Origin: Ectobius pallidus
Lineage: Eukaryota > Arthropoda > Insecta > Blattodea > Ectobiidae
Reading direction: 5' to 3'
DNA: 64,000 nt
NCBI GenBank assembly: GCA_964059195.1
Contig: CAXKWD010000004.1
Location: 118,888,043 to 118,952,042, forward strand
Positions 1 through 54,985 of the stretch are shown piece by piece. Below the pieces are notes generated by a model, which was not told the origin of the DNA, searched no databases, and was given only the letters and a program-made list of their open reading frames with translations. Position 1 is the stretch's first letter; the number at the start of each line of letters is the position of its first letter. The position numbers were made by a program, and so were the translations under genes.

Positions 1-2880
1 AAATCTCTCAATATAAATATATATATATATCTACGCACAGGGACACAACTGCTGAGGAAACTATCAGAAATAACTGAATGGAGAATTCATAAACAAGAAG
101 ACAGAATTAAACTTGAAACTGAAAGGCAAACCCAGATCACCTACGCCCGAGAAGAACTGGACGACAAGAAAGAGGCCAAAGAAACCCCCAAACGAACCCG
201 ACCAAGGAGAGATCAACAAACAAAACACTGACCGGCCAAATTTGACACCAATATAGACAAAGTCAAAGCACATGTAAAAAACTATCTTTGCATGTCGGAC
301 CGCCAAGTATTCAAACCGACCAGTCAGGAATCATCCGAGAAATGACCAAGGTCAAGACGAAAGGAGAAAATCATGGGCCAAGACAATAACTATTTAAAGT
401 AGGTGAAGTTACTAGAAGAAAAAAAACTAAACTGCCTATATGGAAAGCATATATCTATATATGCGGGGCATATATACTTCCCTCGCCTCAGACTGAAGAG
501 CTGCTACCATGCAACGACAGAAGATATTGTGTACATAAGGAAGATTAAGGAACTTTAAGAAAAATATACATATAACTTTGATTCTCAAAATTAGTAGATA
601 CAAAAACCATCAATGCCAAATAATAAATATAAATCTAATATCTCCAATATTTATAACTTTAACTTCGTTGCTGATTAGTTTAGTAATACTGGTACTTTTT
701 AGGAAGACGTGAGGAATTGCCCATCAGAGGGAGATCGAATTCTTCAGTCCAAGGCAAAGTAGAGGGCAAGTAAAGGTGCAGCACAGAAAACAGGTTAAAT
801 TCCATAATGGCAGTAACAATATTTAATAAATAAACTCCACAAAACAATAGTAAAACGGAATAATTCTAAATAGCAGTAATTAACACTGCATAAAATCAAT
901 CTTAAATATGATATACAATAAATAAAGCATGTCACATAAAGACATACACTGGCTACTAATTATACCCAATGACTACTAACTATCCAAATCCTCATCCAGA
1001 ATTTCACTAAGTGCAAAGCAGGGATAATGCGAACTAATCTAACCTAACTCATTAATTATCTAGAATAAGATCAATCATAAGCTTAGGGAAATACGAATGG
1101 AGTGAGGGACAGCAATAAATTTCTAGCAGCATAGTTACTAATACGCAGCAAATAATTGAATAAGAAAAGCTGAAGCACAAATTCAAATAATTTAGAATAA
1201 TTACGGTCAGAGAAAATACAAGAGGGACCAGAGAAAAGATTTACATGAGCATATAATTAAGTGAGCATAATTTAGAAAAATCTTAAATTGAAAGATCAAT
1301 TTGCTGCAAAATACACAGCCCAAAAAAATGTAACAATAAGACTAGAGGCCCTAATCTAACCAGGAAAATAAGTGAACAAGATATGAGTAACCGTTAAGTT
1401 AAATTTAAATCAGAATCAATGACAGGAAAAATCAATAATTAGTTAATAGCCAAAAGGGGGAATAAATTACTATAATATAGAATATAAAAAATCTAAATGA
1501 ACCAGAAAAGAGAATTTACAAAACCAGACAATAAATCTCAGAATGAAAATTTAGTTAATGACAGCAAGTCAGAAATATAACTATGGAAAGGGACCAATGC
1601 AAAAACCGAAAGTTTAGTTAAATAATCATAGTAAAATTGCAGAAACACAGAAAAATATATCTAAGCTAAGAACCAATATGAATATGCAGGACGGTAGAAA
1701 ATTTAGGCCTACCCTGGTTAGAATAAATCTATAACAATTTATAATATACAGAATTACTATACGAACTAGGAGGGAATTTTCACAATATTCACACCATAGA
1801 ATTCCAATCTAAGTCAAGTTAAATAATGATGAGCATGAGAGCAAGGCAGAATTAACTGGAAAAAGTAATTTTAACTTTATACAAATTTCAGTGCCAAATA
1901 TCTGTATATCAATTAAACTTTATATGATATAATTCAAATTGCCGAAATAAGCAAATAATACAAGCTATCAATCTTATTGAAAATTTTACATCACTTGTTA
2001 CGTGAACAATAATTTCCAGAAATTTGAACCTAACAAGGAATACTTGTTTTAATACAATTAATGCACCAAATGCTACAGGGTGTCTAAATATAATCCTGAA
2101 ACACTATCAAATATTTAAGAACATTCCCGAAACTAGTTAGCAAGAATGAATTACTATAAGCAGGGGATAATTTAAGATAACTATCAAAACTCAACTGGGA
2201 AACGCCCACCAAAATGGCGATGTCGGCAAGTCCGAATAATTAGCAAAATCTTGAACGTGGCAGATACATTATTAATGCTTCTAAGAAATTCACTCACAAC
2301 AAAATGTAAGACTACCTATAATAGGTGAAAATATTAACTGAGAGAGTAAGGAGTTGTCATATCCGCGTAGCATAGAATGTGAGGGAAATGTTAACTAACA
2401 TTTACTACAGCATAGAATAAGCTAACCTGCTTCTTATACAAACATTGAAAATCTTTAGCAATTTCTTATATATATTAACTAGCATAATGTCTTGAGGCCT
2501 AAATCATGACTGTATAATGACGTTACAAACTGAATATCATTACATAAAATCCCTACGTGCCTGACACACACAAAATGGATATCCCTGTTAACTTTCTCTT
2601 TATGCATAATTAAATTTTCTGAGCAAAGGAGTGCTTAAGGCACATTAAGTTACTTTGGAATCATAGTAAAGTATTCCACAACTCACATGACAGACCTGGA
2701 AGGTTCTCCACGGCAGGACTCCAGACAACCACACTCACGAGAGACCTCGGCGAATCTAAATTGTCATAGCCTAGCGGTGAACCTCTCCAGCCTGCCACGT
2801 GAGGGCAGCACAGTACTAGATAACGTCATACCAAAGAACATAGAAAGGAGAAACCGTGGAATTATAATTCCACGTTACAG
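1..2880. repeat. Long direct repeat, left copy (LTR-like, cut by window start)
   Basis: This stretch recurs at 5399-8278 with a constant offset of 5,398 bp and is almost identical; I noticed one substitution (near 621/6019). Identity stops sharply at 2880/8278. The left copy begins at or before the window edge, so its true length is unknown. It is A-rich and has no convincing gene; an 80-codon minus-strand ORF at 64-306 and a plus-strand ORF at 2687-2938 have no recognisable domain. The right boundary ends ...GTTACA, which fits an LTR ending in CA (or, read on the minus strand, an LTR starting TGTAAC). I read it as one LTR of a large non-coding retrotransposon; a tandem segmental duplication is the alternative. 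Confidence 0.75.
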
Positions 2881-4194: not shown

Positions 4195-7100
4195 TGCCGA
4201 GGAGGAAAATTCGAGGTCACGAGTGAGTTGTGATATACAAATTACTATATAAAAAGTTTACAACAAATTCAAACTTTAAATGGTTATCAAAGAGAAAGTT
4301 AACTAGACAATTACTTAATTACATAATTATACATATATACACTTATACATTATTTGCATAAAATTATACTTCATTAACTAGGCAAAACATCAAATCATAA
4401 ACCAAAAAAAATAGCCTAAAACTGGGCTTAACATTTCTTTAGTTGCGATACATGACAACGCCTTACCGATTTATCACATAGACCAAAAAAAAAATCCTGA
4501 ACTCTGCCTTATTAGAAGTCACTAGGCACTTATCACGAGTCTCAGATTATTTACTGAATGGGCCTTCTAGATACTGGTCAAATAACTCGATTTAGAAAAT
4601 TCAGCAATAGCTCAAAAATATTGCATGAGAAAATCTACTCACATTAAGAAACTTCAAAACTTCATCTTAATAATTACATAATATAGTATGAAAATAGATT
4701 TTAAAATTTAGTACCAACACACCACAATGAAGTATATCCATGATCATACTGATCAACAAACGTGGCGCACGCCTTCCTAGCAAGGACTACTAAATTTTAA
4801 CTGGAAGTAATCACAATAACACTGATTGATTACAACACAGAAAACCTAAGAGAGGGTATACTGACTATAAACGGCTTGAATCAGGAACGGAGGTGTCCCA
4901 TACCACCCATAAGAATAATATTGTTAGAAGAATAAGAAAAATCGGACCTGCAAAGGGCGTCCCATACCACCCATAAGAATAATATAGTTAGAAGAATAAG
5001 AAAAATCGGATCTGCAAAGGGCGTCCCATACCACCCATAAGAATAATATTGTTAGAAGAATAAGAAAAATCGGATCTGCAAAGGGCGTCCCATACCACCC
5101 ATAAGAATAATATTGTTAGAAGAATAAGAAAAATCGGATCTGCAAAGGGCGTCCCATACCACCCGCAGCAAATGGAATGTAGAAAAATGTAACTTAGCAC
5201 TGACAAACATCAATATCTGAGTCAAAGTCTACCATAATTAGACAAATATCAATAATAAAGTAGCGCGGTGCCGGCCTACCGCAGCTACTGCACACAAGCA
5301 AGCTCACTTGGCATAACTTGAAAAAGTGAATACTGCATCAACCTGAAACCTTTGTAGGTCACCCAGGACATCTATGCTCAGTAACTAGAAGGCAAAAGAA
5401 ATCTCTCAATATAAATATATATATATATCTACGCACAGGGACACAACTGCTGAGGAAACTATCAGAAATAACTGAATGGAGAATTCATAAACAAGAAGAC
5501 AGAATTAAACTTGAAACTGAAAGGCAAACCCAGATCACCTACGCCCGAGAAGAACTGGACGACAAGAAAGAGGCCAAAGAAACCCCCAAACGAACCCGAC
5601 CAAGGAGAGATCAACAAACAAAACACTGACCGGCCAAATTTGACACCAATATAGACAAAGTCAAAGCACATGTAAAAAACTATCTTTGCATGTCGGACCG
5701 CCAAGTATTCAAACCGACCAGTCAGGAATCATCCGAGAAATGACCAAGGTCAAGACGAAAGGAGAAAATCATGGGCCAAGACAATAACTATTTAAAGTAG
5801 GTGAAGTTACTAGAAGAAAAAAAACTAAACTGCCTATATGGAAAGCATATATCTATATATGCGGGGCATATATACTTCCCTCGCCTCAGACTGAAGAGCT
5901 GCTACCATGCAACGACAGAAGATATTGTGTACATAAGGAAGATTAAGGAACTTTAAGAAAAATATACATATAACTTTGATTCTCAAAATTAGTAGATACA
6001 AAAACCATCAATGCCAAATAATATATATAAATCTAATATCTCCAATATTTATAACTTTAACTTCGTTGCTGATTAGTTTAGTAATACTGGTACTTTTTAG
6101 GAAGACGTGAGGAATTGCCCATCAGAGGGAGATCGAATTCTTCAGTCCAAGGCAAAGTAGAGGGCAAGTAAAGGTGCAGCACAGAAAACAGGTTAAATTC
6201 CATAATGGCAGTAACAATATTTAATAAATAAACTCCACAAAACAATAGTAAAACGGAATAATTCTAAATAGCAGTAATTAACACTGCATAAAATCAATCT
6301 TAAATATGATATACAATAAATAAAGCATGTCACATAAAGACATACACTGGCTACTAATTATACCCAATGACTACTAACTATCCAAATCCTCATCCAGAAT
6401 TTCACTAAGTGCAAAGCAGGGATAATGCGAACTAATCTAACCTAACTCATTAATTATCTAGAATAAGATCAATCATAAGCTTAGGGAAATACGAATGGAG
6501 TGAGGGACAGCAATAAATTTCTAGCAGCATAGTTACTAATACGCAGCAAATAATTGAATAAGAAAAGCTGAAGCACAAATTCAAATAATTTAGAATAATT
6601 ACGGTCAGAGAAAATACAAGAGGGACCAGAGAAAAGATTTACATGAGCATATAATTAAGTGAGCATAATTTAGAAAAATCTTAAATTGAAAGATCAATTT
6701 GCTGCAAAATACACAGCCCAAAAAAATGTAACAATAAGACTAGAGGCCCTAATCTAACCAGGAAAATAAGTGAACAAGATATGAGTAACCGTTAAGTTAA
6801 ATTTAAATCAGAATCAATGACAGGAAAAATCAATAATTAGTTAATAGCCAAAAGGGGGAATAAATTACTATAATATAGAATATAAAAAATCTAAATGAAC
6901 CAGAAAAGAGAATTTACAAAACCAGACAATAAATCTCAGAATGAAAATTTAGTTAATGACAGCAAGTCAGAAATATAACTATGGAAAGGGACCAATGCAA
7001 AAACCGAAAGTTTAGTTAAATAATCATAGTAAAATTGCAGAAACACAGAAAAATATATCTAAGCTAAGAACCAATATGAATATGCAGGACGGTAGAAAAT

Positions 7101-8277
7101 TTAGGCCTACCCTGGTTAGAATAAATCTATAACAATTTATAATATACAGAATTACTATACGAACTAGGAGGGAATTTTCACAATATTCACACCATAGAAT
7201 TCCAATCTAAGTCAAGTTAAATAATGATGAGCATGAGAGCAAGGCAGAATTAACTGGAAAAAGTAATTTTAACTTTATACAAATTTCAGTGCCAAATATC
7301 TGTATATCAATTAAACTTTATATGATATAATTCAAATTGCCGAAATAAGCAAATAATACAAGCTATCAATCTTATTGAAAATTTTACATCACTTGTTACG
7401 TGAACAATAATTTCCAGAAATTTGAACCTAACAAGGAATACTTGTTTTAATACAATTAATGCACCAAATGCTACAGGGTGTCTAAATATAATCCTGAAAC
7501 ACTATCAAATATTTAAGAACATTCCCGAAACTAGTTAGCAAGAATGAATTACTATAAGCAGGGGATAATTTAAGATAACTATCAAAACTCAACTGGGAAA
7601 CGCCCACCAAAATGGCGATGTCGGCAAGTCCGAATAATTAGCAAAATCTTGAACGTGGCAGATACATTATTAATGCTTCTAAGAAATTCACTCACAACAA
7701 AATGTAAGACTACCTATAATAGGTGAAAATATTAACTGAGAGAGTAAGGAGTTGTCATATCCGCGTAGCATAGAATGTGAGGGAAATGTTAACTAACATT
7801 TACTACAGCATAGAATAAGCTAACCTGCTTCTTATACAAACATTGAAAATCTTTAGCAATTTCTTATATATATTAACTAGCATAATGTCTTGAGGCCTAA
7901 ATCATGACTGTATAATGACGTTACAAACTGAATATCATTACATAAAATCCCTACGTGCCTGACACACACAAAATGGATATCCCTGTTAACTTTCTCTTTA
8001 TGCATAATTAAATTTTCTGAGCAAAGGAGTGCTTAAGGCACATTAAGTTACTTTGGAATCATAGTAAAGTATTCCACAACTCACATGACAGACCTGGAAG
8101 GTTCTCCACGGCAGGACTCCAGACAACCACACTCACGAGAGACCTCGGCGAATCTAAATTGTCATAGCCTAGCGGTGAACCTCTCCAGCCTGCCACGTGA
8201 GGGCAGCACAGTACTAGATAACGTCATACCAAAGAACATAGAAAGGAGAAACCGTGGAATTATAATTCCACGTTACA
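4195..8277. mobile_element. Candidate complete large LTR (right copy)
   Basis: Bounded on the left by a polypurine-like tract and TGCCGAGG, and on the right by GTTACA. The portion 5399-8278 matches the left copy at 1-2880. Downstream, the sequence GCGAT followed by CTCTTGAATGTTG is the interior of a Helitron family also seen near 8970 and 43665, so the element landed in an older Helitron; GCGAT (8278-8282) may be a 5-bp target duplication whose partner lies outside the window. LTRs of this size with little internal sequence recall non-autonomous LARD-type elements. The left boundary is inferred from a single tract. Confidence 0.45.
4892..5165 (+). repeat. 64-bp tandem repeat array, four units plus a partial fifth
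   Basis: Units begin at 4892, 4956, 5020, 5084 and 5148, each opening with GGYGTCCCATACCACC and containing AAGAATAATATTGTTAGAAG. Units differ by only a few substitutions. A 72-codon minus-strand ORF over this stretch is a by-product of the repeat. Confidence 0.95.
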
Positions 8278-8278
8278 G
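5399..8278. repeat. Long direct repeat, right copy
   Basis: Partner of 1-2880, with which it is nearly identical. Near-identity over 2.9 kb implies recent insertion or gene conversion. No gene is supported in it. Confidence 0.9.
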
Positions 8279-8377
8279 CGATCTCTTGAATGTTGTAGCT
8301 CACGCTGGTCGATTCATTTGTTTTTAATGTCAAGGCACGCAAACATAATATGAAATTTTCATCCTACACCGAAGAGG

Positions 8378-8449
<72 letters not shown>

Positions 8450-8687
8450 GGGATAATCAATATTAGCCTAAATATGGTCAAACGTTGTTCGATTTGGACG
8501 AAACTCACTATACAGGGGTTTTCTGGGCCAAGGAACTCTAATCTGAGGTCGCTTTTACCAGGTGACGCTATCTAATCGTGATATGTAGTCCACATGATTT
8601 AGGTGTTAATATAATGATTTAACTATTATGCTCTTAATTTTTAATTTTTGAAATAATTATAGCGGGCGAAGCCGCGGGCACATGCTA
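8279..8687 (+). mobile_element. Helitron A, 3' part (interrupted by the LTR-like element)
   Basis: This is the 3' portion of a non-autonomous Helitron matching 8980-10106 and 43665-44645. It contains the shared block GTTCGATTTGGACGAAACTC and ends in the family terminus: a GC-rich hairpin (GCGGGCGAAGCCGCGGGC) followed by CATGCTA. The usual final CTAG reads CTAT because the next Helitron begins immediately. Its 5' part lies upstream of the LTR-like insertion, outside the window. No Rep/helicase coding is present. Confidence 0.7.
8379..8449. repeat. (ATT)n microsatellite
   Basis: About 70 bp of uninterrupted ATT triplets inside Helitron A. Confidence 0.97.
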
Positions 8688-10106
8688 TCTTTAAATAATA
8701 AAAATACGTGTTTCTCTGTCTGTCCACGATGCCCAGCGAAATCTACTGAACGCAGAGATCTGAAATTTTAAACATAGATGGGCTGAAAGGTGGGTGAATG
8801 CGCATCGAAGCCGGATTTTTAATTTTAGCTTTCGTTCGCGAGTTGTGAGTGAAAAACTGGCAGAAAACGTGATTTTAGCGCTGTCGAAGCATCAGATTTC
8901 AGTAATACATTTCAATGTCAAATCAATTGCAGTTCGCTTTGGCTATTTTTGTCATACCGTGGAAATAAAAGCATCGCGATCGCTTGAATGTTGTAAGCCC
9001 ACGCTGGTCGATTCAATTGTTTAGAATGACAAGGCCCGTAGACATATGAAATTTTCAACCTACACGGAAGAGGGATAATCAACATAGACCTAAATATGGT
9101 TAAACATCGTTCGATTTGGACGAAACTCACTATACAGGGATTTTCTGGGCCAAGGAACTCGAATCTGAGATCGCTTTTACCGGGCGACGCTATCTAATCG
9201 TGGTATGTAATTCACGTGATTTAGGTGTTAATAAATATATTGATTTAACTATTTGCTCTTTCTTTCTTTCTTTCTTTCTTTTTCGTAGTTTTACCTCTCC
9301 CTTTTAGGATTTAAGCGACCCAAGCCGCCCGGGCCTTACAGGGCCGCGACCTGTCGGGAGAGGGATTACCTTTGGATCACATACATACTTTTTTGACCAG
9401 ACAAGGACATGGAGGGCCTCCCCGGATGAGTGATCAGCCCAATGCCGGGGCCACCTCCGAGACAACACGAACACATAGGACGATACACACCATTCACACA
9501 CACACTCACTCAGAACAAGGCGAGGATGGGGATGAAGATGATAATGACGGCCAGATGATATCCGGGGACCACAAGCGCCTAAAGTTACCTGACATTTGTC
9601 TCATAGGTGAGGGAAAACCCCGGAAAAAACCTCACCTAGGTAACTTTTCCCGACCAGGAATCGAACCCGGGCCCGCTGCGTGAGAGGATTGGACGCATCC
9701 CCTGAGCCACAGCGGTGGACAACTATTATGCTCTTCATTTTTAATTCTTGAAATAATTATCGCGGGCGATCGCTTGATTTTGTAAGTCCATCCTGGACGA
9801 TTCATTTGTTTAGAATATCAAGGTCCGAAGACATATGAAATTTTCAACCTACACGGAAGAGGGATAATCAATGTAGGCCTAAATATGGTCAAACATTGTT
9901 CGATTTGGACGAAACTCACTGTACAGGGGTATTCTGGGCTAAGGAACTCGAATCTGAGGTCGCTTTTACCAGGCGACGCTATCTAATCGTGGTATGTAGT
10001 CCACGTGATTTAGGTGTTAATAAATACTATAATGATTTAACTATTATGCTCTTAATTTTTAATTTTTGAAATAATTATCGCGGGCGAAGCCGCGGGCACA
10101 TGCTAG
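8688..10106 (+). mobile_element. Helitron B, non-autonomous, abutting Helitron A
   Basis: It begins TCTTTAAATAATAAAAATACG, the divergent counterpart of the TCTATATTAATAAAAAG start at 43355, and both continue into the shared GATGCCCAGC and CAGAGATCTGAAATTTTAAA. It ends at CTAG (10103-10106) after the GC hairpin and is followed by T, as expected for Helitrons, which have TC...CTRR ends, insert between A and T and make no target duplication. Two internal unit copies (about 8975-9260 and 9736-10106) are separated by a SINE. It has no coding capacity. ORFs at 8794-9307 are incidental. Confidence 0.75.
9247..9735 (-). mobile_element. tRNA-derived SINE inserted in Helitron B (minus strand)
   Basis: On the minus strand the head (about 9720 down to 9640) carries pol III boxes: an A-box-like TGGCTCAGGGG and a B-box GGTTCGATTCC. 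The tail is the AAAG repeat (seen as TTTC at 9260-9283). The body, 9261-9720, is flanked by a target duplication, AACTATTTGCTCTT at 9247-9260 and AACTATTATGCTCTT at 9721-9735, differing by one base. The Helitron sequence is continuous across the insertion. The apparent 103-codon ORF at 9372-9683 is SINE sequence, not a gene. Confidence 0.9.
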
Positions 10107-10110
10107 TAAC

Positions 10111-20830: not shown

Positions 20831-21004
20831 TGTTCTATCCACTGTTAATATTACCAAGTATTTGCCAATAGTCGATAAGCTATCCACAGTTTTGGCTAAT
20901 ACTATTGCTAATGTTAAAAATACTACCCCTTGTATAGAAACCCATATTCACTGGATACAACTTCAATTTCATTAAATTATATCCTCACATTATGTAACTT
21001 ATGT

Positions 21005-23819
21005 TAGTCCTGTCGATATCCACTTTTTACCTGGAAAATATTCCGAAGTTAATGAAATTTTTACAGGTTATTTGGGGATACTCTATTATCCTAAGTTTTC
21101 GACCTCGAGGACTCTGTGCTAACTTGGGGGAGGTCAAAAACCTCAATTTTTGGAATTTTTTCAGTTTTTCACTTTTATCTCGTAAATAAGCATATTGTGT
21201 GCACCATAGTACTAATACAAAGTTGTAGAGCATTAAATTTGCTAAAATTTGGTTGATAAAAACGAATTTGTAGACCCAATATTAACCGAGATACGGCCGA
21301 TGAAACTTAGACAAAGTTTCTCGAAATGTAAAAAAATATCCGAAAAACGAAGGTTTTGGCGCTATAACTATTTATTACCATCATTTCCATGTTAATTATG
21401 TTAGTCACTCATTAATATCAACATCTTGGAATACCTATGACCCTCTTCCTCCACCCCCTCTTCCCACCCCTCCCCCTCCCCCAAACGTGAAGATCCCTGA
21501 TTTTAATGTAAGAAATGCATTTTAAGAAACCTTCTCACACTTAAAACCCTTTCGTTGTACACACAATGTGATGTCACCGGAGGGTGGGGGGATCCTCTGA
21601 CCTAGAGCCTATTGTGATTTGCAGTTATTTACATATTTTCGTGCCTGGTTATCACCCTACTGTGAATTCCTGTTAACCCATAATCTTGAACCTCAATAAA
21701 CTTAGGTCAGGTAGTTTAAAATAAATAATTAGTAACCAAGAATTAAAGTTTATAGAAGTATAGAATTTATTTACAAAAAATCATAAATTAGTGCATAATT
21801 ATAAATAATTAAGATAATTGCAGGTGTTATGACCAACGTAGAATTATTTTCAAATAATTAGTACATAGTGTATCAGGCTACGAAAATCTTGGAGCGCTTG
21901 GGGGCTGCCGGACCTTCCTCGTCGTCGTCGTCGTCATCATCATTGTCGGGGTCCATGGATACGTCAGTGGGATCCTCACTCTCGTCTGAGGCCTCAGCCT
22001 CTCACTGAGGCTGAGGGGAGTTTTAGCATGCTGTTCCCACGCAGTGCTTGCATACTGCACTCAATTAAGGCACGTGCATTATATGTTGTTACAAGAATGA
22101 AAAGCAATAAGATATCGTGTGGCAAGTTTTAAGAATGAAAATGTACTATTACAGCATCACTTAGTATTGACAAAGTGCATAAAAATACCCACCTCATTTG
22201 GTAAGCTTCCATCCCCATACAGAAGGCAACTTCTGATTTCTCCCTTGGTTTCCCATCCACGCCTGGACTTGCAAGTACATCCTGGCGGCATCTCTGGTTG
22301 GTGGCAGTCTGGCAAGTTGACATTTCGGCTTTGCCATGACTGTGGAAAAAATGCTGTACCTCAGGTCTTCGAGGTTGTCAAGTTCAATAGTCCCTCCATA
22401 CAGTAAAACAAGAAATTTCTTTCTAACATCAGCGATTTGAGTTGGAGTTGCGTCGGGGTCTTTAAAAATCGCCAACATCTCTGAAAGGCTAGAGTTCTTG
22501 CTATACATCTGCATCACCTTCTTCTTTCCAATACCAAAAGGTGCTGAGGTGGTGTCACATGCAGGAAAAGAATATCCTGTGGTTCGTACTTGAAGGAATG
22601 GGATGAATACAGCACAGTTTGGATGTTACCCTTTCCACTCTTCTGGAAATAGACGTCTTTTTTGGAAGAACCCAAAGCAGTGAGTAGCACCAGAAGATAT
22701 ATGTCGTAACCTGTTATGATGCACTATCATATTTGTCAGCAGCTAAGCTAAGACAGCAGCATCCACAATCATTACATCGGCGTCTTCTACTGCCTGCTTC
22801 ACTTGGATCCCCTTGGCTTCCATTTCACTCTTCAATATGGTTATGAAGTTCATCTTGTTGGTATCATTGGAAAAAAATTTCGCCTGCGAAATCCTGCTAA
22901 TCAAAGTTGTCTTGGAAAAGACAAACTTTGTTGAGGAGTGCAGCAAAAGAACGCCGATAACGTTCAGCTGCTTTGGTGCTTTGGTAGTTTATCCCAACAG
23001 GATAACCATCAAAAACCACTATGACATTGCTACCGAAGTGCCTATGGACGTAATCCATGTAGTTTTGGCAGACTACCTGAAATGTGGCTTCACTTGACTT
23101 GGTCCAAACAACCCTATGCAATAGAAACCCACCATCAATGACAATGCCTTTTCTGGCGCCAAAATCTACGTCTTCACCCACGATAGGAAGGAATGATCAT
23201 ACAGCATCGACAATAGACCCCCCTCCGGTGACATCACATTGTGTATACAACGAAAGGGTTTTTGGTGTGAGAAGGTTTCTTAAAATACATTTCTTACATT
23301 AAAATGAGGCATCTTCACGTTTGGGTTAGGGGAAGGGGTGGGAAGAGGGGAAGGAGGGAGGGGGTGATAGATATTCCAATATGTTGATATTAATTAGTGA
23401 TTAACATAATTAACATGGAAATGATGGTAATAAATAGTTATAGCGCCAAAACCTTCGTTTTTCGAATATTTTTGTACAATTCGAGAAACTTGGTCTAAGT
23501 TTCATCGGCCGTATCTCGGTTAATGTTGGGTCTACAAATTCGTTTAATCAACCAGAGTTTAGCAAATTTAATGTTCTACAACTTTGTATTGTACTATGGT
23601 GCGCAAAATATGCTTAGTTTACGAGATATAAGCGAAAAACTGAAAAAAGTCCAACATCTTTGAGGTTTTTGACCTCCCCCCAAGTTAGCACAGGGTCCTC
23701 GAGGTCGAAAACTTAAGATAGACATCCTAGAGTACCTCCAAATAACCTGTAAAAATTTCATTAACTTCGAAATGTTTTCCAGCTACCCCCCTTTTTTTTT
23801 CATTATATCGACTGGACTA
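21005..23819 (-). mobile_element. Transposon-like unit with ~600-bp inverted arms and a FEN1-like gene
   Basis: The left arm (about 21005-21590) and right arm (about 23217-23819) are diverged inverted copies of each other. Shared landmarks, read inward, are TAGTCC..GTCGATAT, GAAGTTAATGAAATTTTTAC, AGTTTTCGACCTCGAGGAC, GAGATACGGCCGATGAAAC and CCCTTTCGTTGTA. TGT follows the right end and precedes the left end, a possible 3-bp duplication. The enclosed region carries one minus-strand gene relic with nuclease-like motifs. No DDE transposase, integrase or RT is recognisable, so the mobilising enzyme is unknown. Confidence 0.75.
21873..23181 (-). pseudogene. Broken FEN1/XPG (PIN-like) nuclease-like gene
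   Basis: Read on the minus strand, the first piece (23181-22897) has VIDGGFLLHRVVW (Asp16) and VIVVFDGYP (Asp58), which recall the first Asp and the VFDG box of FEN1/XPG nucleases. The next piece (about 22890-22743) has AVEDADVMIVDAAV, matching the acidic E.[ED]A..I box; the frame then shifts to a YDIYLLVLLTAL stretch (about 22710), where the family's second Asp of the D.D box appears to be Tyr. A further piece (22517-22194) has LPPTRDAARMYLQVQAWMGN and ...VWGWKL. The C-terminus (to a stop near 21873) is acidic with a run of seven Asp and ends PKRSKIFVA. At least three frameshifts or stops break it. I recall similar multicopy unnamed proteins in arthropods; the nuclease assignment is motif-based inference. 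Confidence 0.6.
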
Positions 23820-24396
23820 TGTTGTCTTGTATGTGTAAAATTTACTAATCGATTATTGAGATATCACATAAGTATTAAAAATGTTAATTTATCCTAAGGT
23901 CCTAGGTAGCTATGAGATAACGACAATTGCTAATTGATCCTTAAGAAACTTGATAGGCCTAAGAAAATTAACATTTACCAGCCTACCGAAGAATATTTTA
24001 AGGATAAATAAGGAGAGTTTCTAAATTCATCAGTGGGTCCATCCGATGGCATCGAGCATTCATCAGAGCGTTTTTAATTTGATTTAAGGAATCCATTGGC
24101 AATCCATCAAAGCGTTCTCTGGGTTCTGATAAGTTAGCGCTGGTTCGACTGACATCGGTTCCATCGTACTTTAACGTCCGATGGTTCAGACATTGGGCTG
24201 GAACAGAACTGGAGTTAGCACTCCAGCACAGAAAGTGAGGCCGACTGTTTCGACTAGCTCCGCCTGTAAAATCTGGCAAGAAGCTATTTGTCTGCTCAGC
24301 AAGAAATGTCAAGTAGGCCTATATGCCTGAAAATGTATTACGATAGAGTGAACATTACCTTGCCTTTAACTCCAAATAATTTATTTTTATCAATAC
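23820..24396. other. No gene; transposon-like words near 24010-24250
   Basis: GAGTTTCTAAATTCATC at 24014 recurs inverted near 33672, and the following CCATCCGATGG/GATGG-rich sequence resembles that region. Possibly one end of an unclassified DNA transposon. A 104-codon minus-strand ORF (23998-24312) has no recognisable domain. Confidence 0.3.
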
Positions 24397-34588: not shown

Positions 34589-37500
34589 ATGGGTGACAAC
34601 TTCATAAACCAATTAAGTAATAGTTATAATTTTAAAAATGTAAAAACTGCTGTCTTTGAGGACCTCGACTACTGTAATAATTTCATCCGATCCAAGCAGC
34701 ATGATTTTAAATTAATTCATTTAAATATACGCAGCTTAAATAAACACTACCTGGAACTCTGTACATTACTGCAAAGTTTCTCATTGGATTTTGATATCAT
34801 TGTTAAAGAGTCCTGGTTGAATCATGACACTGGATACAAATTACCTGGATATAAAAAAAACTACAAAAATTAATAAATATAGTAAATGCGATGGCTTCGT
34901 TGTTTATGTAAAAAATTATTTAAATGTGACAGTAGAAGAAAAAATGGTCATCGACGAATGCAATTCAATTCATCTCAAAATTAATTATGAAAATAATCTA
35001 CTTATGTTAACAGCAATTTACAGATCTCCAAATTGTTGCAAAAATACCTTTCTCGATAGCTTAGAATAATTATTACGCAATATTAAAGAATGTAAGAAAC
35101 ATGTCATTGTTGGAGACATTAATATACAGATTCTAGAAGAAAATATCGACTTGTTTGGAAGTAGGTATACAAATATTTTACATGAATATGGTTTCGAAAA
35201 GTATTTAAATTCCATTACTAGACCTGCATCTAATTCTTGTCTAGATCACATATTTTACAAAGATGAATGTAATGGTAGTTTTCAACCCGGAATTTATAAA
35301 AGCTCAATTACTTATCATTATGCAATTTTCGCCTTGTTCCAAATTAATTATTCACCTACCGGCATAAATGTAAGTTCTTCCAAACAAAATTGTGAATCTG
35401 ATATATATACGCAAAAGCTTGTAAATTATAACAAATTAATCTATGAATTAGAAAAAGAAACATGGGTAAATGTATTGGACTGTAATATTGCTAACAATAG
35501 TTTTCGAATATTCCATGATTTGCTGCAAAATTATCTAAACAAATGCTCATATACTGACAATAAAAAAGTTCCTTGCAAACTAAAGAAAATCAAGCCATGG
35601 ATCACGAGAGGAATAATTTTGTCTATTCGGACAAGGGACAATTTGGCAAATAAAGTTAGGAGAAACCCTACAAACGAAAATCTAATATTATACTACAAGA
35701 GATACAGAAATATATTAACAAAAGCTGTACGAGCCATGAAAGTTACTTATTACAAAAATAAATTTGAAATACATAAAAATAACGCTAGAAAATTCTGGTC
35801 CACTGTCAATGAAGCTACCGATACTAATTCAAATAATAAAATCCCAATCTTAGAAATCATAAATGAAAAAGGACAAAAAATTAAGCAAAGTGACCAAATT
35901 GCAAATGAATTTAACTCCTTTTTTTCGAAAATAGGAAAAAGAATCACTTCAAATATTAAGTTAGCACCAAACAGTATCCCTAAATATAAAAAATGTATAC
36001 CACAACCTGCTCAGCTTTCGTCAATGTTTCTTCTCCCTGTAACCCAAGATGAAATAAATAAAATGATAATCTCACTAAAAAATAACGTTGCCCCTGGTAC
36101 GGACGGAATAACAAACAACACCTTGAAAACAATTTCTAAATGCATATCGAAGCCCCTCGAACATATTTTTAATCTTTGCTTATCACAAGGAACTTTCCCA
36201 GATGATCTTAAAAAAGCTGTCGTAGTACCTATATACAAATCCGGAGAAAAGCATAGTTTAAATAACTGTAGACCTATATCCTTACTCCCTAGCCTATCGA
36301 AACTGTTAGAAAAATGTATAAAAAATAGACTGGTGGACTTCTTAAATAAAAATAATATATTAAATTCAAATCAATTCTGTTTTCGAAATAACTTGAGCAC
36401 AGATGATGCCATAATTAATGTTACAGGAAATGTTATCGAAGAATTAGATGCGGGAAATAAAAGTCTAGGTATTTTTTTGGATTTGCAAAAGGCTTTTGAC
36501 ACTGTAAACCACAAGATACTTATAGAAAAATTAGAGCAAAGTGGAGTAAGAGGTACTGCACTAAATTTATTTCGGTCTTATTTACATAATAGAACGCAAA
36601 TAACCAAAATTAAGGATCAGTTTAGTGATATCAGAGATGTGGATACCGGTGTGCCACAAGGAACAATTTTGGGTCCAATTCTTTTCATTATTTACATAAA
36701 TGAGTTGCTGCATTTGGACTTAAATAATTTCCATGGCCGTCTTTACTCTTATGCCGATGATACCGTATTGCTATTTTCCGCTCCAACTTGGCAGGATACT
36801 TACAAATGGGCTAATAAGGGATTAAGAGTAGTTAAAAGTTGGCTTGACTGTAATAGGTTAGTATTAAATATAGATAAAACAAACAGTGTTCCATTCTCAT
36901 TAACAACTGCTGGTACTCCACAATTAAAAATGGATCAAAACTTGTGCGTAAGACTACATGATATCAACTGTGAATCTGATTCATGTACCTGCCAGGCTGT
37001 GAAGGAGACAAATCAGGTCAAATACCTTGGTATTATTATAGATCGTCATCTGAAATTCGACAAACACATCACATATTTATGTACCAGATTAAGAAAAACA
37101 TTATACAAATTTGTCTGTCTAAAACAATATTTACCGACTGAAGTCTTAAAAACAGTCTACTTAGCTCTAATACAATCTGTCCTCCAATATGGTATCATTG
37201 GCTGGGGGGGGGGGGAAGTGGCACTTCTGTAGTGACTTCTTTGATTCTAATACAGAAGAGAATTATAAAAATTTGTTTAAAAAAGCCTATAGAATATCCA
37301 ACAGAATTGATATTTTCTGAATTTAATGTGATGACTGTAGAAAAAATTTATAAGGTCACACTTTTAAAATACTTTCAAAAATACCGCAACGTACATGTAT
37401 CGGATCCTCATAACTACAATACTAGAAGAAATAAAACATTTCCTTTAATAGAACCAAAATACTTCACCTCTTCTGGCTCTAAACATTGCATTTATTATGG

Positions 37501-37597
37501 TCCAAGACTCTATAACTCTATAATTAGGTCACATCCAGAAATAGTACCTATGAACAACAACAAATTCAATAAGTTTATCAAAAATCTTATTTCATAG
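34589..37597 (+). pseudogene. LINE ORF2: endonuclease plus reverse transcriptase, three lesions
   Basis: The first piece (34589-34873) has LIHLNIRSLNKHYLEL and the ESWL box of APE-type endonucleases. The second (34824-35069) has YRSPN near its end, and the same frame resumes after one stop with VGDINIQI and SCLDHIF. The long open piece (35151-37232, 693 codons) carries the RT: PGTDGI (about 36098), NCRPISLLPSLSKLLEK, FLDLQKAFDTVNH (catalytic Asp about residue 444), GVPQGTILGPILF and YADDT (residues 534-538), then KYLGIIID and LIQSVLQYGI. After the G-run frameshift a 121-codon piece (37232-37597) supplies the end (IQKRIIKICLKKP ... NLIS). The motifs are intact, so the decay is recent. Confidence 0.92.
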
Positions 37598-42894: not shown

Positions 42895-44752
42895 TAGGGC
42901 ACGGAAGTTAATGAAACGTCATCTTTTTCTGAGACATCACTGACAAGGCAGGATGTACTGTAAATTCGTCTCGCCTCAAAATAAACAAAACAAAAACCTA
43001 CTTTTATTTAACATTTCTTTGAATTTGTCGGCATTTTATTCTCTACTGGTCATTTTTTTAGGAAATGTTCATTCTTCCATTGCATTTTTTCCATATTTCG
43101 TCTTCAGAATGGACTTTTCCAACATTTCAGACAAAGCGTTCTCGTAATTCCTTACCGCCAAACAGTTAAATGCGTATTGATTTGGCATCTTTATCGTCAG
43201 ACAAAGAAGTACAACATTCATTAATAAATATAGTAAACATATCAATAATAAAAGAAAACACATTAACAAAAGTGGTAATACAAAGTACTTAAATATTAAC
43301 TTTTGTTTATTATTATTTATTATTATCGTGCATAATTAAATACATAATCTATAATCTATATTAATAAAAAGAAGTGTCTGTCTTCCTTCTGTCTGTCTGT
43401 CATGTCTTTCCGCGATGCCCAGCAAAATCTACTCAACGCAGAGATCTGAAATTTTAAACATAGGTGGACTGAAGGGTCGGAAAATGCACCTCGAAGCCGG
43501 AATTTTAATTTTCGCTTTCGTTCGTGAGTTATGAGTGAAAAACGGGCAGAAAACGTGCATTTTTTGCGTTTTCGAAGCATCGGTTTTGAGTAATACATTT
43601 CAATGTCAAATCAAATACAGTAGGCTTTGGCTATTTTCTCATACCTTGGACATAAAACCATCGCGATCATTTGAATGTTGTAAGCTCACGCTGGTCGATT
43701 CATTTGTTTATAATGTCAAGGCACGCAGACATATGAAATTTTCAACCTACACCGAAGAGGGATAATCAATATAGACCTAAATATGGTCAAACGTTGTTCA
43801 ATTTGGATGAAACTCACTATACAGGGGTTTTCTGGGCCAAGGAACTCGAATCTGAGGTCGCTTTTACCAGGCGACGCTATTTAATCGTGGTATGTAATTC
43901 ACGTGATTTAGGTGTTAATACATATAATGATTTAACTAATACGCTCTTAATTTTTAATTTGTGAAATAATTATCGCGGGCGATCGCTTGATTTTGTAAGT
44001 CCATCCTGGACGATTCATTTGTTTAGAATGTCTAGGCCCGTAGACATATGACATTTTCAAGCTACAGTCCTACACGGAAGAGGGATAATCAATATAGGCC
44101 TAAATATGGTCAAACATTGTTCGATTTGGACGAAACTCACTATACAGGGGTTTTCTGGGCCAAGGAACTCGAATCTGAGGTCGCTTTTACCAGGCGACGC
44201 TATTTAATCATGGTATGTAGTCCACGTGATTTAGGTGTTAATAAATATAATGATTTAACTATTATGCTCGTAATTTTTAATTTCTGAAATAATTATCGCG
44301 GGCGATCGCTTGATTTTGTAAGTCCATCCTGGACGATTCATTTGTTTAGAATATCAAGGCCCGCAGACATATGAAATTTTCAACCTACACGAAAGAGGAA
44401 TAATCAATATAGGCCTAAATATGGTTAAACATTGTTCGATTTGGACGAAACCCACGATACGTGGGTTTTCTGGACCAAGGAACTCGAATCTGAGGTCGCC
44501 TTTACCAGGTGACGCTATCTAATCGTGATATGTAGTCCACGTGATTTAGGTGTTAATAAATATAATGATTTAACTATTAGACCTATGCTCTTAATTTTTA
44601 ATTTTTAAAATAATTATCGCGGGCGAAGCCGCGGGCACATGCTAGTTAGAAATATTATGTCATTTTTAAATTTTTCATGTATTTCCATAAATTTAAGGTC
44701 ATTTTATAGGTAATTTTTCAGGCCTTTTTAGGTCATCAACTTCCGAGCCCTA
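42895..44752. mobile_element. hAT-like element interrupted by a Helitron
   Basis: Ends TAGGGCACGGAAGTTAATGA (42895) and TCATCAACTTCCGAGCCCTA (ending 44752) are inverted repeats. The 8-bp flanks GTCATTAC (42887-42894) and GTCAATAC (44753-44760) differ by one base. Excluding the Helitron it is about 570 bp and non-coding. The TAGGG/TAGAG..CGG termini resemble those at 14341 and 63349, suggesting one family. Confidence 0.85.
43355..44645 (+). mobile_element. Non-autonomous Helitron C, complete
   Basis: Begins TCTATATTAATAAAAAG after an A and ends with the GC hairpin (GCGGGCGAAGCCGCGGGC) plus CATGCTAG (44638-44645) before a T. This matches Helitron rules: TC start, hairpin, CTAG end, A|T target, no duplication. 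The interior contains three tandem units starting near 43665, 43981 and 44304 (periods 316 and 323), each with GATCRYTTGA, GTTCGATTTGGACGAAACYC and the CGAATCTGAGGTCG block. No Rep/Hel gene. The ORFs at 43356-44287 follow the repeats. Confidence 0.92.
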
Positions 44753-47794: not shown

Positions 47795-49094
47795 TGGTGT
47801 AAATGGAGTCATCTCCATTAATATCAAGTGATAGAAAATGATGAGAAATAGATTGATATTAATTAAATACGGCAGATAATAACTTTTGAACTAACAAAGC
47901 AATATTATTATAAATTACATGATAAAAATCAGGAAAAATTAACAAATAATATTACATAAATATGAAATTAATATCATCAATACTTTAGCTGATATTAATT
48001 ATTTTATAGTAAAGAATAAAATACACTAGGACTCAATAGAAGTTAGCAGACGGAATACTCAGAAATATACAATGCAGCCGGAGTGAAATGTATAGCAACT
48101 CTGTGGGAGATAGGTGCCAGGTATTGTCAGAAATGTACTAGGCTATTCAGTCAAAATGTAGTAGAAAGGAAAGATTATGAGATGAATAGGCACTTCACGA
48201 GAATGTACAGTGAAAGTTGCAAGGTCCAAGAACTAGACAGAAATTCGGAGAATCGCATGATGGGAGAAACAGAAAAGCATCACTCCCAAGCTAAAAACCA
48301 CGCTAATCGAAACAACCAATAGAATTTAAGTTTAGGATAGAAAAAAACTGAATTTAGCTATAACAGTGCAGATGATTGGTTTTGTGTGACTATGGTAAGG
48401 AAGGGAAATTGAGAGGAGGCTAAGATCATGGCTTTTACGAAACTACACTTGTGTACGAAGGACTCGAGGAGGCAGGTCATATCCCTGCATTTCTCCTCGA
48501 ATTACACATAAGTCGTATTGACATTGTGGTCAATCCGACTGTATCTATATAAATAACTTCACTAAATTACCGAAGTGTAAATTCTATTATACATTTATTC
48601 TTGCAGTAAGAGCTTATTATAGCTACTTACTAAAATAAATTCAGTGAGTGTGCCAAGTAAGTACTGTTGTGACTTTGACGTCACCATCATTACAAGATTA
48701 CGTGGATATTGAGTGTCACTACTAGGAAGTATTTACGTACGAGTTGCAAAGGCCAATATTAGACTCCCTTCAATATCCCATCATAAAATGAATAAATTCA
48801 CGAAGTAACATTTATACATTTGAACTTTGATTGGAATACTAAATAAACTTACAGTGTTTGATAAATATTTAATTATTGATAAACAGTAAATATAGAACCT
48901 CCACACCCAATTTTATGCCCTGAGGTAAGATAGAGAAAATCGTAGCAACTCCGACTGAGCAACCCGAGGTTCCACCAGGCTGAAGAAGACAACATTCGCA
49001 GTGAGTACAATATTGTGGGGGTGGACCACAAACCGATTGCAGCATACTGGGAGAACTCATACAACGAGGGCTTGTAGTGTGAAGTACTGCACCA
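47795..49094 (+). repeat. 5' LTR
   Basis: Begins TGGTGTAAATGGAG and ends GTACTGCACCA. A TATA-like TCTATATAAATAA near 48543-48556 is a plausible promoter element, and AATAAA-type words follow (near 48649 and 48841). A 79-codon ORF (48083-48322) occurs in both LTRs with no recognisable domain; it is probably incidental. Confidence 0.95.
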
Positions 49095-49100
49095 TATTTA

Positions 49101-49121
49101 TGGCGCCCAATCTCGTGAGGC
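49101..49121 (+). promoter_or_regulatory. Primer binding site, tRNA-Lys-like
   Basis: TGGCGCCCAATCTCGTGAGG lies 6 nt after the 5' LTR. The first ten bases match the complement of a tRNA-Lys 3' end (known form TGGCGCCCAACGTGGGGC); the remainder aligns only with a small insertion. TGG is the complement of the tRNA CCA tail. Confidence 0.7.
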
Positions 49122-49573
49122 TCGAAAAATCGTTGGACGTAAAAAATCCCATAAATAACTACATATTTATGACTTTACCAACGTGGGTCACGAAATACAG
49201 ATCTTAAAAATCCAGAAATAACTACATACTACAAAGAAGCAACAACGTGGGTCTTCGAAAAAAGGAGTTAAGCCAAGGGACGACGACCATCGCTATTAGG
49301 AGCTGGGCACCGAGCGTGAGAAGGAGGACGACGGGAACCAAGATTAGGAGCCGGGCAACGCAAGAAAAGAAGAGAAGAGAGAAAAAGAAGGCAACACGAT
49401 CGAACCAGAAGGAAGGATGACTAACCGGAACCAAAACTGATAAGTCAAAAGATTTTATATGAAAGTGTTACAAGGGTATTTTGTATTGTGCATGCAATTA
49501 ATGACTTGTGTGTTAATCATGAAAAATTTTGGGGGTAACCTGAAATGCTGTAAGAAAATACAAAGTGTAAGGA

Positions 49574-51751
49574 ATGTATAAATTACGGAGTGGGAAAATT
49601 GTAAACAGTGAAATGGAATCAAGTGAAAGTCAGTTAGGACAAGATTTATTAAGTCAAGGGGAATTGGAAAATTTTCAAAATAACGCAAATATGGAAGCAA
49701 ACAATGATAATGAAGTAGGGGTTATTGAAGAAAATAACAGTCAGGAAATTGAAAATCAATCAGAGGAACCTTCTGTTCAAATTGCAGTAGAAAGTTCAGA
49801 GGATCAGAACGAGATAGGTCCAATAGAAAAAGAAAATAAAAATGTAGGGGGAGATCAGTTATCAATAATGCAACAGATAATGGCAATGATGGTAGAAAAT
49901 CAGAAATCACAAAAGCAGTTAGGGGAAGAGGTTAAGCAGATTAATGAGGGAAATAAGAAGTTAGGGGAAGAGGTTAAGCAGATTAATGAGGGAAATAAGA
50001 AGTTAGGGGAAGAGGTTAAGCAGATAAATGAGGGAAATAAGCAGATTGTTAAGGATAACAAGAAAGTTGTAGAGAGATTAGAGAAAATTAGCGAGGAAGT
50101 CAAAGAAATAAATGATAGGTTAGAAGGAAAAATCAAAAATGTAGTAGTTGATTTAGAAAATTCTAAGAAAGAGATTCACAACAAAATTGCTGAAAATCAG
50201 AAGAAAGTTGAAGTAAAATTAGTTGAAAAAAATAAAGAATTGGAAAGTAAGTTAGCGCAGGCAGTTTCTGCAGACTTAGAGGAGATCAATAATAAATTTC
50301 ATGGCAGGGTTAAAGAACTAGAACATAAACTGGAGATAAATAAAACAGCAACAGAAAACGTAAAAATTGAGGTATTGGACAAAGTAAAACAGGTAGAAGG
50401 GTCTTTATCTGAGAAGGTTATAAACATAGAAAAACAGGTAAACACATTGAATGCCAAAATTAATAGCAGTGAGAATGAACCTCAAAGTGTACGTAGCAGT
50501 AGTGACGTCAGGAGGAACAGCCTTGCAACATTTAATGTAAATAATACTGCAGTATTAGCAGCAAATGAATTGCCATGTGAACCACAAGGTCCTCCTAGCG
50601 TCAACACTGAGCCAGATGATACGGGAAGCAATATCGAATTAGGGTCCCACAATGTAATGCAACTAGGTATCAGGAATCCTATCCACTTGTCACAAATTTT
50701 GGGGCATGATTGGACAGCACCTCGGTATAACGATGACAACTCATCGAACCCACATCATTTTATAAACGAATTGGATACCTACTTTAAAATAAAAGCGGTA
50801 CCGGACGATTATAAAATGCTGATTGTTCAGAAAAGTTTGGTCGGAAAGTGCAGAGATTGGTGTAACTTCGTGTCACAAAGGGGGATAGGATATCCTGAAT
50901 TTAAGAGGTTATTTATGGAAAGATACTGGAGCGCGAGTCGCCAGAGTAAGGCCCGAGCTGAGTTGTATTCAGGTAAATATAATGAAAGTTCGAATATGAC
51001 AATGTCTGAATATTTCGTCAGAATAATGAAAGTTGCCAGGTCATTAGACTTACAATTAGCTGAAAAAGATGTGCTTCAATTAGCCTTAAAACATTATAAG
51101 CCCGAGATATATAATAATTTAGTTGTCGCTAGGCCTAAAACTTGCGCCGAGGCACTAACATTATTAACTGAGTTTGAAGAGGTACATAGCCACGAGAGAA
51201 CTCGTGATGTAAATAACAGGTTTGACAGTAGAAATGGGAGTGGCAACACAGGTGAAAATAGAGGTAGCCAGGCGAGCAATAGTGGGGCCCAGAATAATTA
51301 TACTGGTAGGCCTAACCCTGGGAATCAGAATAATCAAACGCAGAGAGGATATAATGGTAGGAATTGCGGTAATCAGAATTATCAATTTCAAGGTAATAGA
51401 CAAGATAGGCCTAATCAAGAAAGTGGTTACAGAAACCAAAACAATAATATGGGTCAAACTCAGCGAAATGATTATAACAGGGGAAGAAACCCACCACAGA
51501 ATACGAGGGTAAATCACATAGCATTCTCAGAACCAGATCGGAGGAATTCAGATAACAATCAGCAACGAGGGGAGGTGAGAGAAGGCCGCTATATCGGTTA
51601 CAATTCTAAAGGGAATACGGTACAAGGCGATACGCGTGACAGAAATACTTCGCTTAACCCGGAAGCAAGTGAATATCACAATAACAATACAAGACAGTCA
51701 AATCAAACTGAAATAAATCAAGGAGATTTAAACTCCAGCGAGACGTACTAG
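49574..51751 (+). CDS. gag: Gag polyprotein (725 aa), intact
   Basis: Structural protein that would form the particle. It starts MYKLRSGKIV, a basic N-terminus like that of several gypsy-type Gags, after a leader of about 480 nt. Residues about 30-105 are acidic. Residues about 110-290 form a long coiled coil including three 14-residue repeats (LGEEVKQINEGNKK, from 42-bp DNA units at 49919, 49961 and 50003). Residues about 375-535 are the retrotransposon Gag (capsid-like) domain, with HHFINELDTYFKIKAVPDDY, WCNFVSQRGIGYPEFKRLF and LALKHYKPEI. Residues about 540-725 are N/Q/G/R-rich; no CCHC zinc knuckle is visible, so this basic tail may bind RNA instead. The stop lies within the frameshift hairpin. 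Full-length and apparently functional. Confidence 0.92.
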   Translation: MYKLRSGKIVNSEMESSESQLGQDLLSQGELENFQNNANMEANNDNEVGVIEENNSQEIENQSEEPSVQIAVESSEDQNEIGPIEKENKNVGGDQLSIMQQIMAMMVENQKSQKQLGEEVKQINEGNKKLGEEVKQINEGNKKLGEEVKQINEGNKQIVKDNKKVVERLEKISEEVKEINDRLEGKIKNVVVDLENSKKEIHNKIAENQKKVEVKLVEKNKELESKLAQAVSADLEEINNKFHGRVKELEHKLEINKTATENVKIEVLDKVKQVEGSLSEKVINIEKQVNTLNAKINSSENEPQSVRSSSDVRRNSLATFNVNNTAVLAANELPCEPQGPPSVNTEPDDTGSNIELGSHNVMQLGIRNPIHLSQILGHDWTAPRYNDDNSSNPHHFINELDTYFKIKAVPDDYKMLIVQKSLVGKCRDWCNFVSQRGIGYPEFKRLFMERYWSASRQSKARAELYSGKYNESSNMTMSEYFVRIMKVARSLDLQLAEKDVLQLALKHYKPEIYNNLVVARPKTCAEALTLLTEFEEVHSHERTRDVNNRFDSRNGSGNTGENRGSQASNSGAQNNYTGRPNPGNQNNQTQRGYNGRNCGNQNYQFQGNRQDRPNQESGYRNQNNNMGQTQRNDYNRGRNPPQNTRVNHIAFSEPDRRNSDNNQQRGEVREGRYIGYNSKGNTVQGDTRDRNTSLNPEASEYHNNNTRQSNQTEINQGDLNSSETY
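49919..50044 (+). repeat. 42-bp in-frame tandem repeats in gag
   Basis: Three units start TTAGGGGAAGAGGTTAAGCA at 49919, 49961 and 50003, nearly identical. They add 14-residue coiled-coil turns (two heptads each). Confidence 0.95.
51727..51733 (+). promoter_or_regulatory. TTTAAAC slippery heptamer for -1 frameshift
   Basis: In the gag frame the sequence reads GAT TTA AAC, so the heptamer has the required X_XXY_YYZ phasing (T_TTA_AAC). The downstream ORF is in the -1 frame and is open from 51712 on, giving a 40-nt overlap with gag. TTTAAAC is one of the most efficient known slippery heptamers. Confidence 0.85.
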
Positions 51752-51768
51752 AGAGTCGTAGTATGTCT
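51741..51768 (+). promoter_or_regulatory. Frameshift-stimulating stem-loop
   Basis: AGACGTACTA (51741-51750) pairs with TAGTATGTCT (51759-51768): ten base pairs including one G-U, around an 8-nt loop GAGAGTCG. It begins 7 nt after the heptamer, the usual spacing. The gag stop TAG (51749-51751) sits at the top of the stem. Confidence 0.8.
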
Positions 51769-54811: not shown

Positions 54812-54985
54812 TGTCCTAGGGTCGATTCAACCTCTTACAGAAATTAGTATACCAGGTGCAATGCTGGGGGTTAAAGGTGTCCAGTGCGTAAGGCTGGCAA
54901 CCTTTATGTCCGAATATTTAAAAATCTGGGAACCTCACTCAACCTTCTGGAACCTAGGGTCACCAAGGCTTCTACAGGTATCATT

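What the first reader, a model, noticed from the sequence alone, without database searches (positions are those of the whole stretch)
21005..23819. Mobile-looking unit with ~600-bp inverted arms and a FEN1/XPG-like nuclease gene, no known transposase
Arms of about 600 bp in inverted orientation enclose a single minus-strand gene relic whose motif order (VIDGG, VFDG, an EDAD box, DxxLLVLL, tryptophan block, acidic tail) resembles the FEN1/XPG/PIN fold. Nothing resembling a DDE, tyrosine or HUH recombinase is visible. If the nuclease-like protein belongs to the element, this could be an undescribed transposon type; alternatively the gene is cargo, or the arms arose by inverted duplication.
Basis: partly seen in the sequence, partly recalled or inferred. 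Interest (0 to 1): 0.8.

Follow-up and report, generated by a model that had tools for sequence, protein, structure and literature searches.

The report
Non-autonomous XPG-nuclease transposon copy
The long inverted arms and broken nuclease gene are one copy of a repeated DNA transposon family whose longer relatives in the same genome carry a transposase-like region in front of the nuclease, so it looks like a cut-down member of a known kind rather than a new transposon type.

Summary
Window 21005-23819 is a 2,815-bp unit with ~0.6-kb inverted arms (90% identical), a TGT target duplication and a broken minus-strand FEN1/XPG-like nuclease gene. It belongs to a dispersed family: 40 arm matches (one the window itself) scored from 663 candidates in the host genome. 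Of 20 copies fetched, 19 have both arms and the nuclease interior. All 24 elements whose two ends I read, four from related families, have a perfect 3-bp duplication at TAG(T/C)CC...GG(A/G)CTA.

"No transposase, perhaps a new type" does not hold. Two related elements (6.4 and 7.3 kb, near-identical end motif, long arms, 3-bp duplication) encode an upstream transposase-like region (weak DUF6589 match) ahead of this nuclease and a cysteine-rich tail. In the window family the gene is broken in 20 of 20 sequences, its N-terminal block undetected in any and its cysteine tail at best a remnant. Most likely a non-autonomous transposon moved in trans. Nuclease and 3-bp duplication fit AcademX; Academ transposase membership could not be tested. 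No full-length partner of this exact family was found, catalytic residues are inferred, and no structure was predicted.

The parts
21005..23819 (.). whole element, 2815 bp, TIR TAGTCC(T/A)GTCGATAT
   Evidence: ends fixed by alignment of arms and by 24 elements
21005..21588 (+). left terminal inverted repeat
   Evidence: 90.35% identical to the right arm over 570 columns; 40 genomic matches scored, the window included
23218..23819 (-). right terminal inverted repeat
21002..21004 (.). target site duplication TGT, left
23820..23822 (.). target site duplication TGT, right
21873..23181 (-). broken FEN1/XPG-like nuclease gene relic; conserved N-terminal block before VIDGG not detectable
   Evidence: frames; tblastn; N-terminal profile at chance level
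22948..23142 (-). piece with VIDGG and VFDGY motifs
22752..22892 (-). piece with EDAD motif, different frame
22598..22717 (-). piece with LLVLL motif, third frame
22194..22574 (-). piece with CDTTS, LPPT and WGW motifs
22008..22064 (-). remnant of the last part of the cysteine-rich tail
   Evidence: profile match to its last 18 positions; coordinates read by eye
21788..21797 (.). site that is empty here but filled by a nested insertion in 12 of 20 fetched copies

Best explanation
The unit is one copy of a non-autonomous DNA transposon family. It arose by internal deletion from a longer element built as: long inverted arm, transposase-like region followed by an XPG/FEN1-like nuclease with a cysteine-rich tail, long inverted arm. 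The deletion removed the transposase part and the start of the nuclease part. Both arms stayed, so an enzyme supplied in trans by a full-length relative can still recognise the ends TAGTCCAGTC, mobilise the unit and insert it with 3-bp staggered cuts. Shown: repetition, ends, 3-bp duplications, broken gene in the 20 sequences read, longer relatives with near-identical ends and the same duplication length. Inferred: the deletion history, that the upstream part is a DDE-type transposase, that it acts in trans on this family, that the nuclease helps processing, and that the group is AcademX.
For: Arms repeated genome-wide (40 scored of 663 candidates, window included). 19 of 20 fetched copies have both arms and the nuclease interior (the twentieth, L033, showed no second arm). 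24 of 24 perfect 3-bp TSDs. Longer relatives L041 (6,377 bp, TSD CTG) and L042 (7,286 bp, TSD TAT) with ORFs of 1,286 + 139 aa and 309 + 1,218 aa; weak DUF6589 match upstream of the nuclease, E 5.3e-4 in L041 and 0.08 in L042, both under Pfam's cut-off. L042's first ten bases TAGTCCAGTC equal those of the window family (18 of 20 left ends; the window's left end and L035's differ by one base each); L041 has TAGCCCAGTC. Arm cores are distantly related: L041 right arm to window right arm 59.5% over 262 columns, E 1e-8; other window comparisons only partial. L044 shows the same kind of deletion in another family: 3,591 bp, arms 93.8-94.6% identical to L042's, only the nuclease end left. The N-terminal profile is found in L041-L044 (E below 1e-13) and in 0 of 20 window-family sequences below E 3. 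Each of the 20 has a frame change or stop in the nuclease. AcademX makes 3 or 4 bp TSDs and the Academ lineages AcademH and AcademX are linked to helicase and nuclease (PMC10045372, passage).
Against: No full-length element with this family's own arm sequence was found: the search meant to find it did not complete. The DUF6589 match is below the curated cut-off and no catalytic triad was tested. The upstream region of L042 has no match among solved structures by single-sequence search. One copy, L022, keeps one frame through the seven anchors (with stops), and the matched pieces of L025 and L039 have no stops (in three frames), so the damage is not identical in all copies.
Confidence: 0.87

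Rival explanations
1. The nuclease itself is the mover: a transposon type that transposes with an XPG/FEN1-like nuclease and no DDE recombinase.
For: The window family and L044 hold essentially only the nuclease end between the arms. In the own-genome search 38 of 93 listed nuclease matches have no stop inside (some are pieces of one gene). Acidic motifs are conserved across relatives.
Against: L041 and L042 carry a large upstream region conserved between them. The window family multiplied although its gene is broken in 20 of 20 sequences read and lacks its N-terminal block. L042/L044 nuclease dN/dS is 0.92 on 38 differences, as for an unconstrained copy (low power).
Confidence: 0.05
2. A long-TIR element of another superfamily with 3-bp duplications (PIF/Harbinger, CACTA, Zator) that picked up the nuclease as cargo.
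For: 3-bp duplications occur there too (recalled).
Against: No fixed target triplet: the 20 window-family duplications include TGT, TAA, AAA, CAG, TAC. The same nuclease sits in the same place in L041-L044, so it is no chance cargo. No Pfam match to such transposases in the three L041 and L042 ORFs scanned.
Confidence: 0.06
3. Arms produced by an inverted duplication at this locus, not by transposition.
For: Arms are only 90% identical here; in the 19 copies left and right arms are 87.7-98.4% identical.
Against: Dispersed copies with the same boundaries and different 3-bp duplications.
Confidence: 0.01

Closest known systems
AcademX lineage of the Academ DNA transposons
   Same: Terminal inverted repeats, 3-bp duplications (published 3 or 4; PMC10045372, passage), nuclease encoded by the element; longer relatives of 6.4-7.3 kb against a published mean of 5,565 bp for bivalve Academ (PMC10294476, passages). 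The XPG plus Cys8 make-up of Academ is recalled, from no call.
   Different: The window family lacks the transposase part and has a broken nuclease. Its arms of about 600 bp are long; arm lengths of published AcademX were not available.
AcademH lineage of Academ
   Same: Same superfamily if the name is right.
   Different: AcademH is linked to a helicase and makes 9 or 10 bp duplications (PMC10045372, passage); here 3 bp, and no helicase match in the L041 and L042 ORFs scanned.
FEN1/XPG nucleases (Exonuclease 1, FEN1)
   Same: Profile match over 59-257 of 435 positions to Exonuclease 1, with FDG, AD, ED.D and GCD motifs in register; scattered matches of single members to flap endonuclease and 5'-3' exonuclease models, best E 4.9e-4.
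   Different: Tryptophan block and cysteine-rich tail at the C-terminus. Pfam XPG_N matches 2 of 94 members, best E 0.12 (first 25 of 49 families shown), and the window piece at 13.3 bits against a cut-off of 22.
Kolobok lineages with accessory nucleases (KolobokP, KolobokE, KolobokD)
   Same: Eukaryotic transposons that pair a DDE transposase with a nuclease (PMC9587614, passages).
   Different: Other nuclease folds (His-Me finger, PD-(D/E)xK, DEDDh); Kolobok targets TTAA (recalled), not free 3-bp sites.

Membership tests
Academ, AcademX lineage | terminal inverted repeats | tested here: met
Academ, AcademX lineage | 3 or 4 bp target site duplication | tested here: met
   24 of 24 perfect at 3 bp, 0 of 24 at 4 bp
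Academ, AcademX lineage | encodes a nuclease (XPG type, recalled) | tested here: met
   broken relic in the window family; open frames in L042, L043, L044 and, over two ORFs, L041; Exonuclease 1 match of the family
Academ, AcademX lineage | no helicase (distinguishes from AcademH) | tested here: met
   no helicase match at E 1 or better in the three L041 and L042 ORFs scanned
Academ, AcademX lineage | DDD/E transposase | tested here: inconclusive
   upstream part seen only in relatives; weak DUF6589 match; conserved D and E positions in two or three sequences, catalysis not tested
Academ, AcademX lineage | transposase groups with Academ in a phylogeny | not testable with these tools
   no Academ reference sequences held; Kojima 2020 not held
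FEN1/XPG nuclease family | conserved acidic motifs in the family order | tested here: met
   for natural relatives; the window copy keeps most of them in broken frames
FEN1/XPG nuclease family | PIN-like fold | not tested
   structure prediction closed
AcademH | 9 or 10 bp duplication | tested here: not met
   3 bp in 24 of 24

The most novel reading that the evidence does not exclude
Nuclease-keeping deletion derivatives form repeatedly in this lineage (window family, L044, and L043 which keeps the rear of the transposase), because the nuclease-side end is needed in cis or because nuclease made by such derivatives serves the transposition of full-length relatives. The XPG-like nuclease would then be a working second cutting activity of the transposition reaction, which sets the 3-bp stagger, and some derivative families would be helper elements rather than mere passengers.
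Probability: 0.12. Interest if true: 0.7.

Novelty: new member of a known kind. Interest (0 to 1): 0.36.

Why it matters
It shows that the arms-plus-nuclease unit is a transposon with defined ends and a 3-bp duplication, and supplies longer relatives in the same genome in which the role of a FEN1/XPG-like nuclease in DNA transposition can be tested. It also shows how a nuclease-only derivative can look like a transposon type without a transposase.

Tried and rejected
Viral collection: three scans with P0003, A3 and A4, no relative; prokaryote genome contigs, one scan with A1, none. Pfam and NCBIfam give scattered weak PIN-like matches to members of A7: NYN in 2 of 94 at E 0.01, best 8e-5; flap endonuclease Xni in 5 of 94, best 0.0033, and 5'-3' exonuclease in 3, best 4.9e-4. 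Considered and rejected: that the arms code for the missing N-terminus (tblastn of P0079 runs 66 bases into the right arm, but the N-terminal profile scores at chance level there); that the 4-kb interior of L034 is the missing transposase (it lies within a nested insertion at the site where other copies carry 0.5 kb, and its 166-aa ORF has no Pfam match); a 5-bp or 2-bp duplication. Papers: ten searches. I saw listings, and passages of PMC10045372, PMC9587614, PMC10294476 and PMC8290104; none of these passages describes the Academ nuclease in sequence detail. One search opened the outline of an unrelated paper because I recalled a wrong DOI.

In one search my LPPT anchor was set off frame (it reads HQPEM), so only the sum over its two intervals means anything.

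Full report
What was checked. Between them lies a minus-strand gene relic in three frames with stops.

It is a repeated family. The host genome (G000, 2.12 Gb in 410 contigs, no name given) holds 40 scored matches to the left arm, one of them the window itself, out of 663 first-look candidates, at 90-100% identity, on many contigs. I fetched the twenty next best with 8-9 kb each. 19 of the 20 have both arms and the nuclease interior; L033 showed no second arm and was dropped from the later counts of ends and frames. The copies are the best matches, not a random sample.

Ends and target duplication. For the window, those 19 copies and four elements of related families, the three bases just outside TAG(T/C)CC...GG(A/G)CTA are identical on both sides in 24 of 24 cases, and four bases in none; with one flank shifted by 1 to 3 bases, 0 to 4 of 24 agree. 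For L035 I moved the left end two bases outward, where the first TIR letters read TG instead of TA; L037 lacks one G in its right end. The triplets differ (TGT, TAA, AAA, CAG, TAC, GTT and others), so there is no fixed target.

The protein. The most conserved relic piece (107 aa) finds three close relatives; a profile of these finds 76 proteins and a wider one 281 (only the best 7,996 candidates scored, 120 listed). Many relatives have 400-521 aa, with the order VIDGG, VFDGY, DAD, GEDxDLL, GCDTTS, LPPT, WGW and a cysteine-rich tail. The profile of 94 of them matches Exonuclease 1 at E 1.2e-4 with FDG, AD, ED.D and GCD in register. A narrower first profile (18 sequences) found no solved structure at E 10. 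So the FEN1/XPG reading is supported by sequence; the fold itself was not predicted.

The gene is dead in this family. In all 20 window-family sequences (window and 19 copies) the nuclease has a frame change or a stop; the damage is not identical in all, for L022 keeps one frame with stops and L025 and L039 show no stops within the matched pieces of their three frames. The conserved 48-position block before VIDGG is found in L041-L044 at E below 1e-13 and in 0 of 20 window-family sequences below E 3. Of the cysteine tail there are weak matches (7-17 bits, against 47-67 in L041-L044) at E 0.04 or better in 17 of 20, and in the three alignments I printed only the last 18-20 positions match. Interiors are 93-99% identical pairwise; one group of 14 copies is 96-99% alike and 0.8-2.1% from the column majority, the window copy 4.0%. 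So the family very probably multiplied after the gene was cut down, and fairly recently in one branch.

The longer relatives. A protein search of the same genome with the 501-aa relative P0079 gave 11,745 first-look candidates, 86 scored, 93 matches listed, among them open frames of 1,303 and 1,218 aa. Two loci were fetched. L041 is a 6,377-bp element, TSD CTG, arms of about 640 bp, with an ORF of 1,286 aa and a further 139-aa ORF holding the LPPT block and cysteine tail. L042 is a 7,286-bp element, TSD TAT, first ten bases TAGTCCAGTC as in the window family, with ORFs of 309 and 1,218 aa. In both the nuclease is the downstream part, and the upstream part is conserved between the two, with a weak match to Pfam DUF6589 (E 5.3e-4 and 0.08, under the cut-off). 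Conserved stretches such as VTxDQPLYxKAREI and WSDMxIExxLMR could supply a DDE triad; this is my inference from two sequences. Two more loci look like deletion derivatives: L044 (3,591 bp, TSD CTG), whose arms are 93.8-94.6% identical to L042's, keeps the nuclease end only, and L043 (3,670 bp, TSD AAT) keeps the rear of the upstream part and the nuclease. So 4 of the 86 scored places were read. Between L042 and L044 the nuclease has 9 synonymous and 29 nonsynonymous differences over 593 codons, dN/dS 0.92: no sign of constraint, with little power. Arm cores are distantly related across families (best with the window 59.5% over 262 columns, E 1e-8).

How it most likely works. A transposase supplied in trans by a full-length relative recognises the long arms and moves the internally deleted unit, leaving 3-bp duplications. 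The nuclease in full-length elements may process ends or flaps; in the window family it is a passenger relic. Shown: family, ends, duplications, broken gene, longer relatives of the same build. Inferred: catalysis by the upstream part, action in trans, role of the nuclease.

Name. [quoted passage not shown] Academ is counted among DDE/D superfamilies and averages 5,565 bp in bivalves (PMC10294476, passages). That Academ encodes an XPG nuclease and a Cys8 zinc finger I recall from Repbase; no call showed it. I therefore say that it works like and very probably is AcademX, with transposase phylogeny untested.

What remains open: the full-length partner with this family's own arms (search did not complete), the fold, the catalytic residues, and why nuclease-keeping derivatives recur.

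Noticed in passing
L025-L034, L037, L040 (12 of 20 fetched copies), at the site matching window 21788-21797: A nested insertion at one and the same interior site, with flanking 10-mers like TTAGAGCATA (10 of the 12 measured: nine of 472-541 bp, L034 4,018 bp). Its right end read inward is CAGGTATGGGCAAC, hAT-like by recall. It was probably carried along by later transposition.
   Followed up: partly
L034:5842-6342 (-): 166-aa ORF inside the 4-kb nested insertion, reminiscent of a large family of transposon proteins (recalled); no Pfam match at E 1.
   Followed up: partly
window 47795-54812: LTR retrotransposon with 1,301-bp repeats 99.9% identical, a 725-aa gag-like ORF (Ty3 capsid, weak) and a 380-aa ORF with an aspartyl protease match; no reverse transcriptase ORF of 110 aa or more was listed between the repeats.
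   Followed up: partly
window 1-2880 and 5399-8278: Direct repeat of 2,880 bp, 99.97% identical, cut by the window edge; perhaps the long repeats of another young element.
   Followed up: no
window 35151-37597: LINE-like reverse transcriptase ORF of 693 aa (RVT_1 E 1.7e-33) with a following 121-aa ORF.
   Followed up: no
window 8278-10107 and 43403-44657: Two blocks with related tandem repeats of about 323 bp, mostly around 90% alike.
   Followed up: no
G000:C2:57618983, C12:7264489, C12:7581105: Three places with 1,303-aa open frames and equal scores in the P0079 search, which suggests recent activity of the L041-type element; only the last was fetched.
   Followed up: partly
G000:C3:189925796, C1:83080261, C10:96630925, C7:19383216, C4:171091528, C1:21501322, C8:17576195, C8:32721553: Eight matches with open frames of 527 aa, similar extent and 0-2 stops inside, possibly another nuclease-only derivative family with nearly intact frames.
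   Followed up: no
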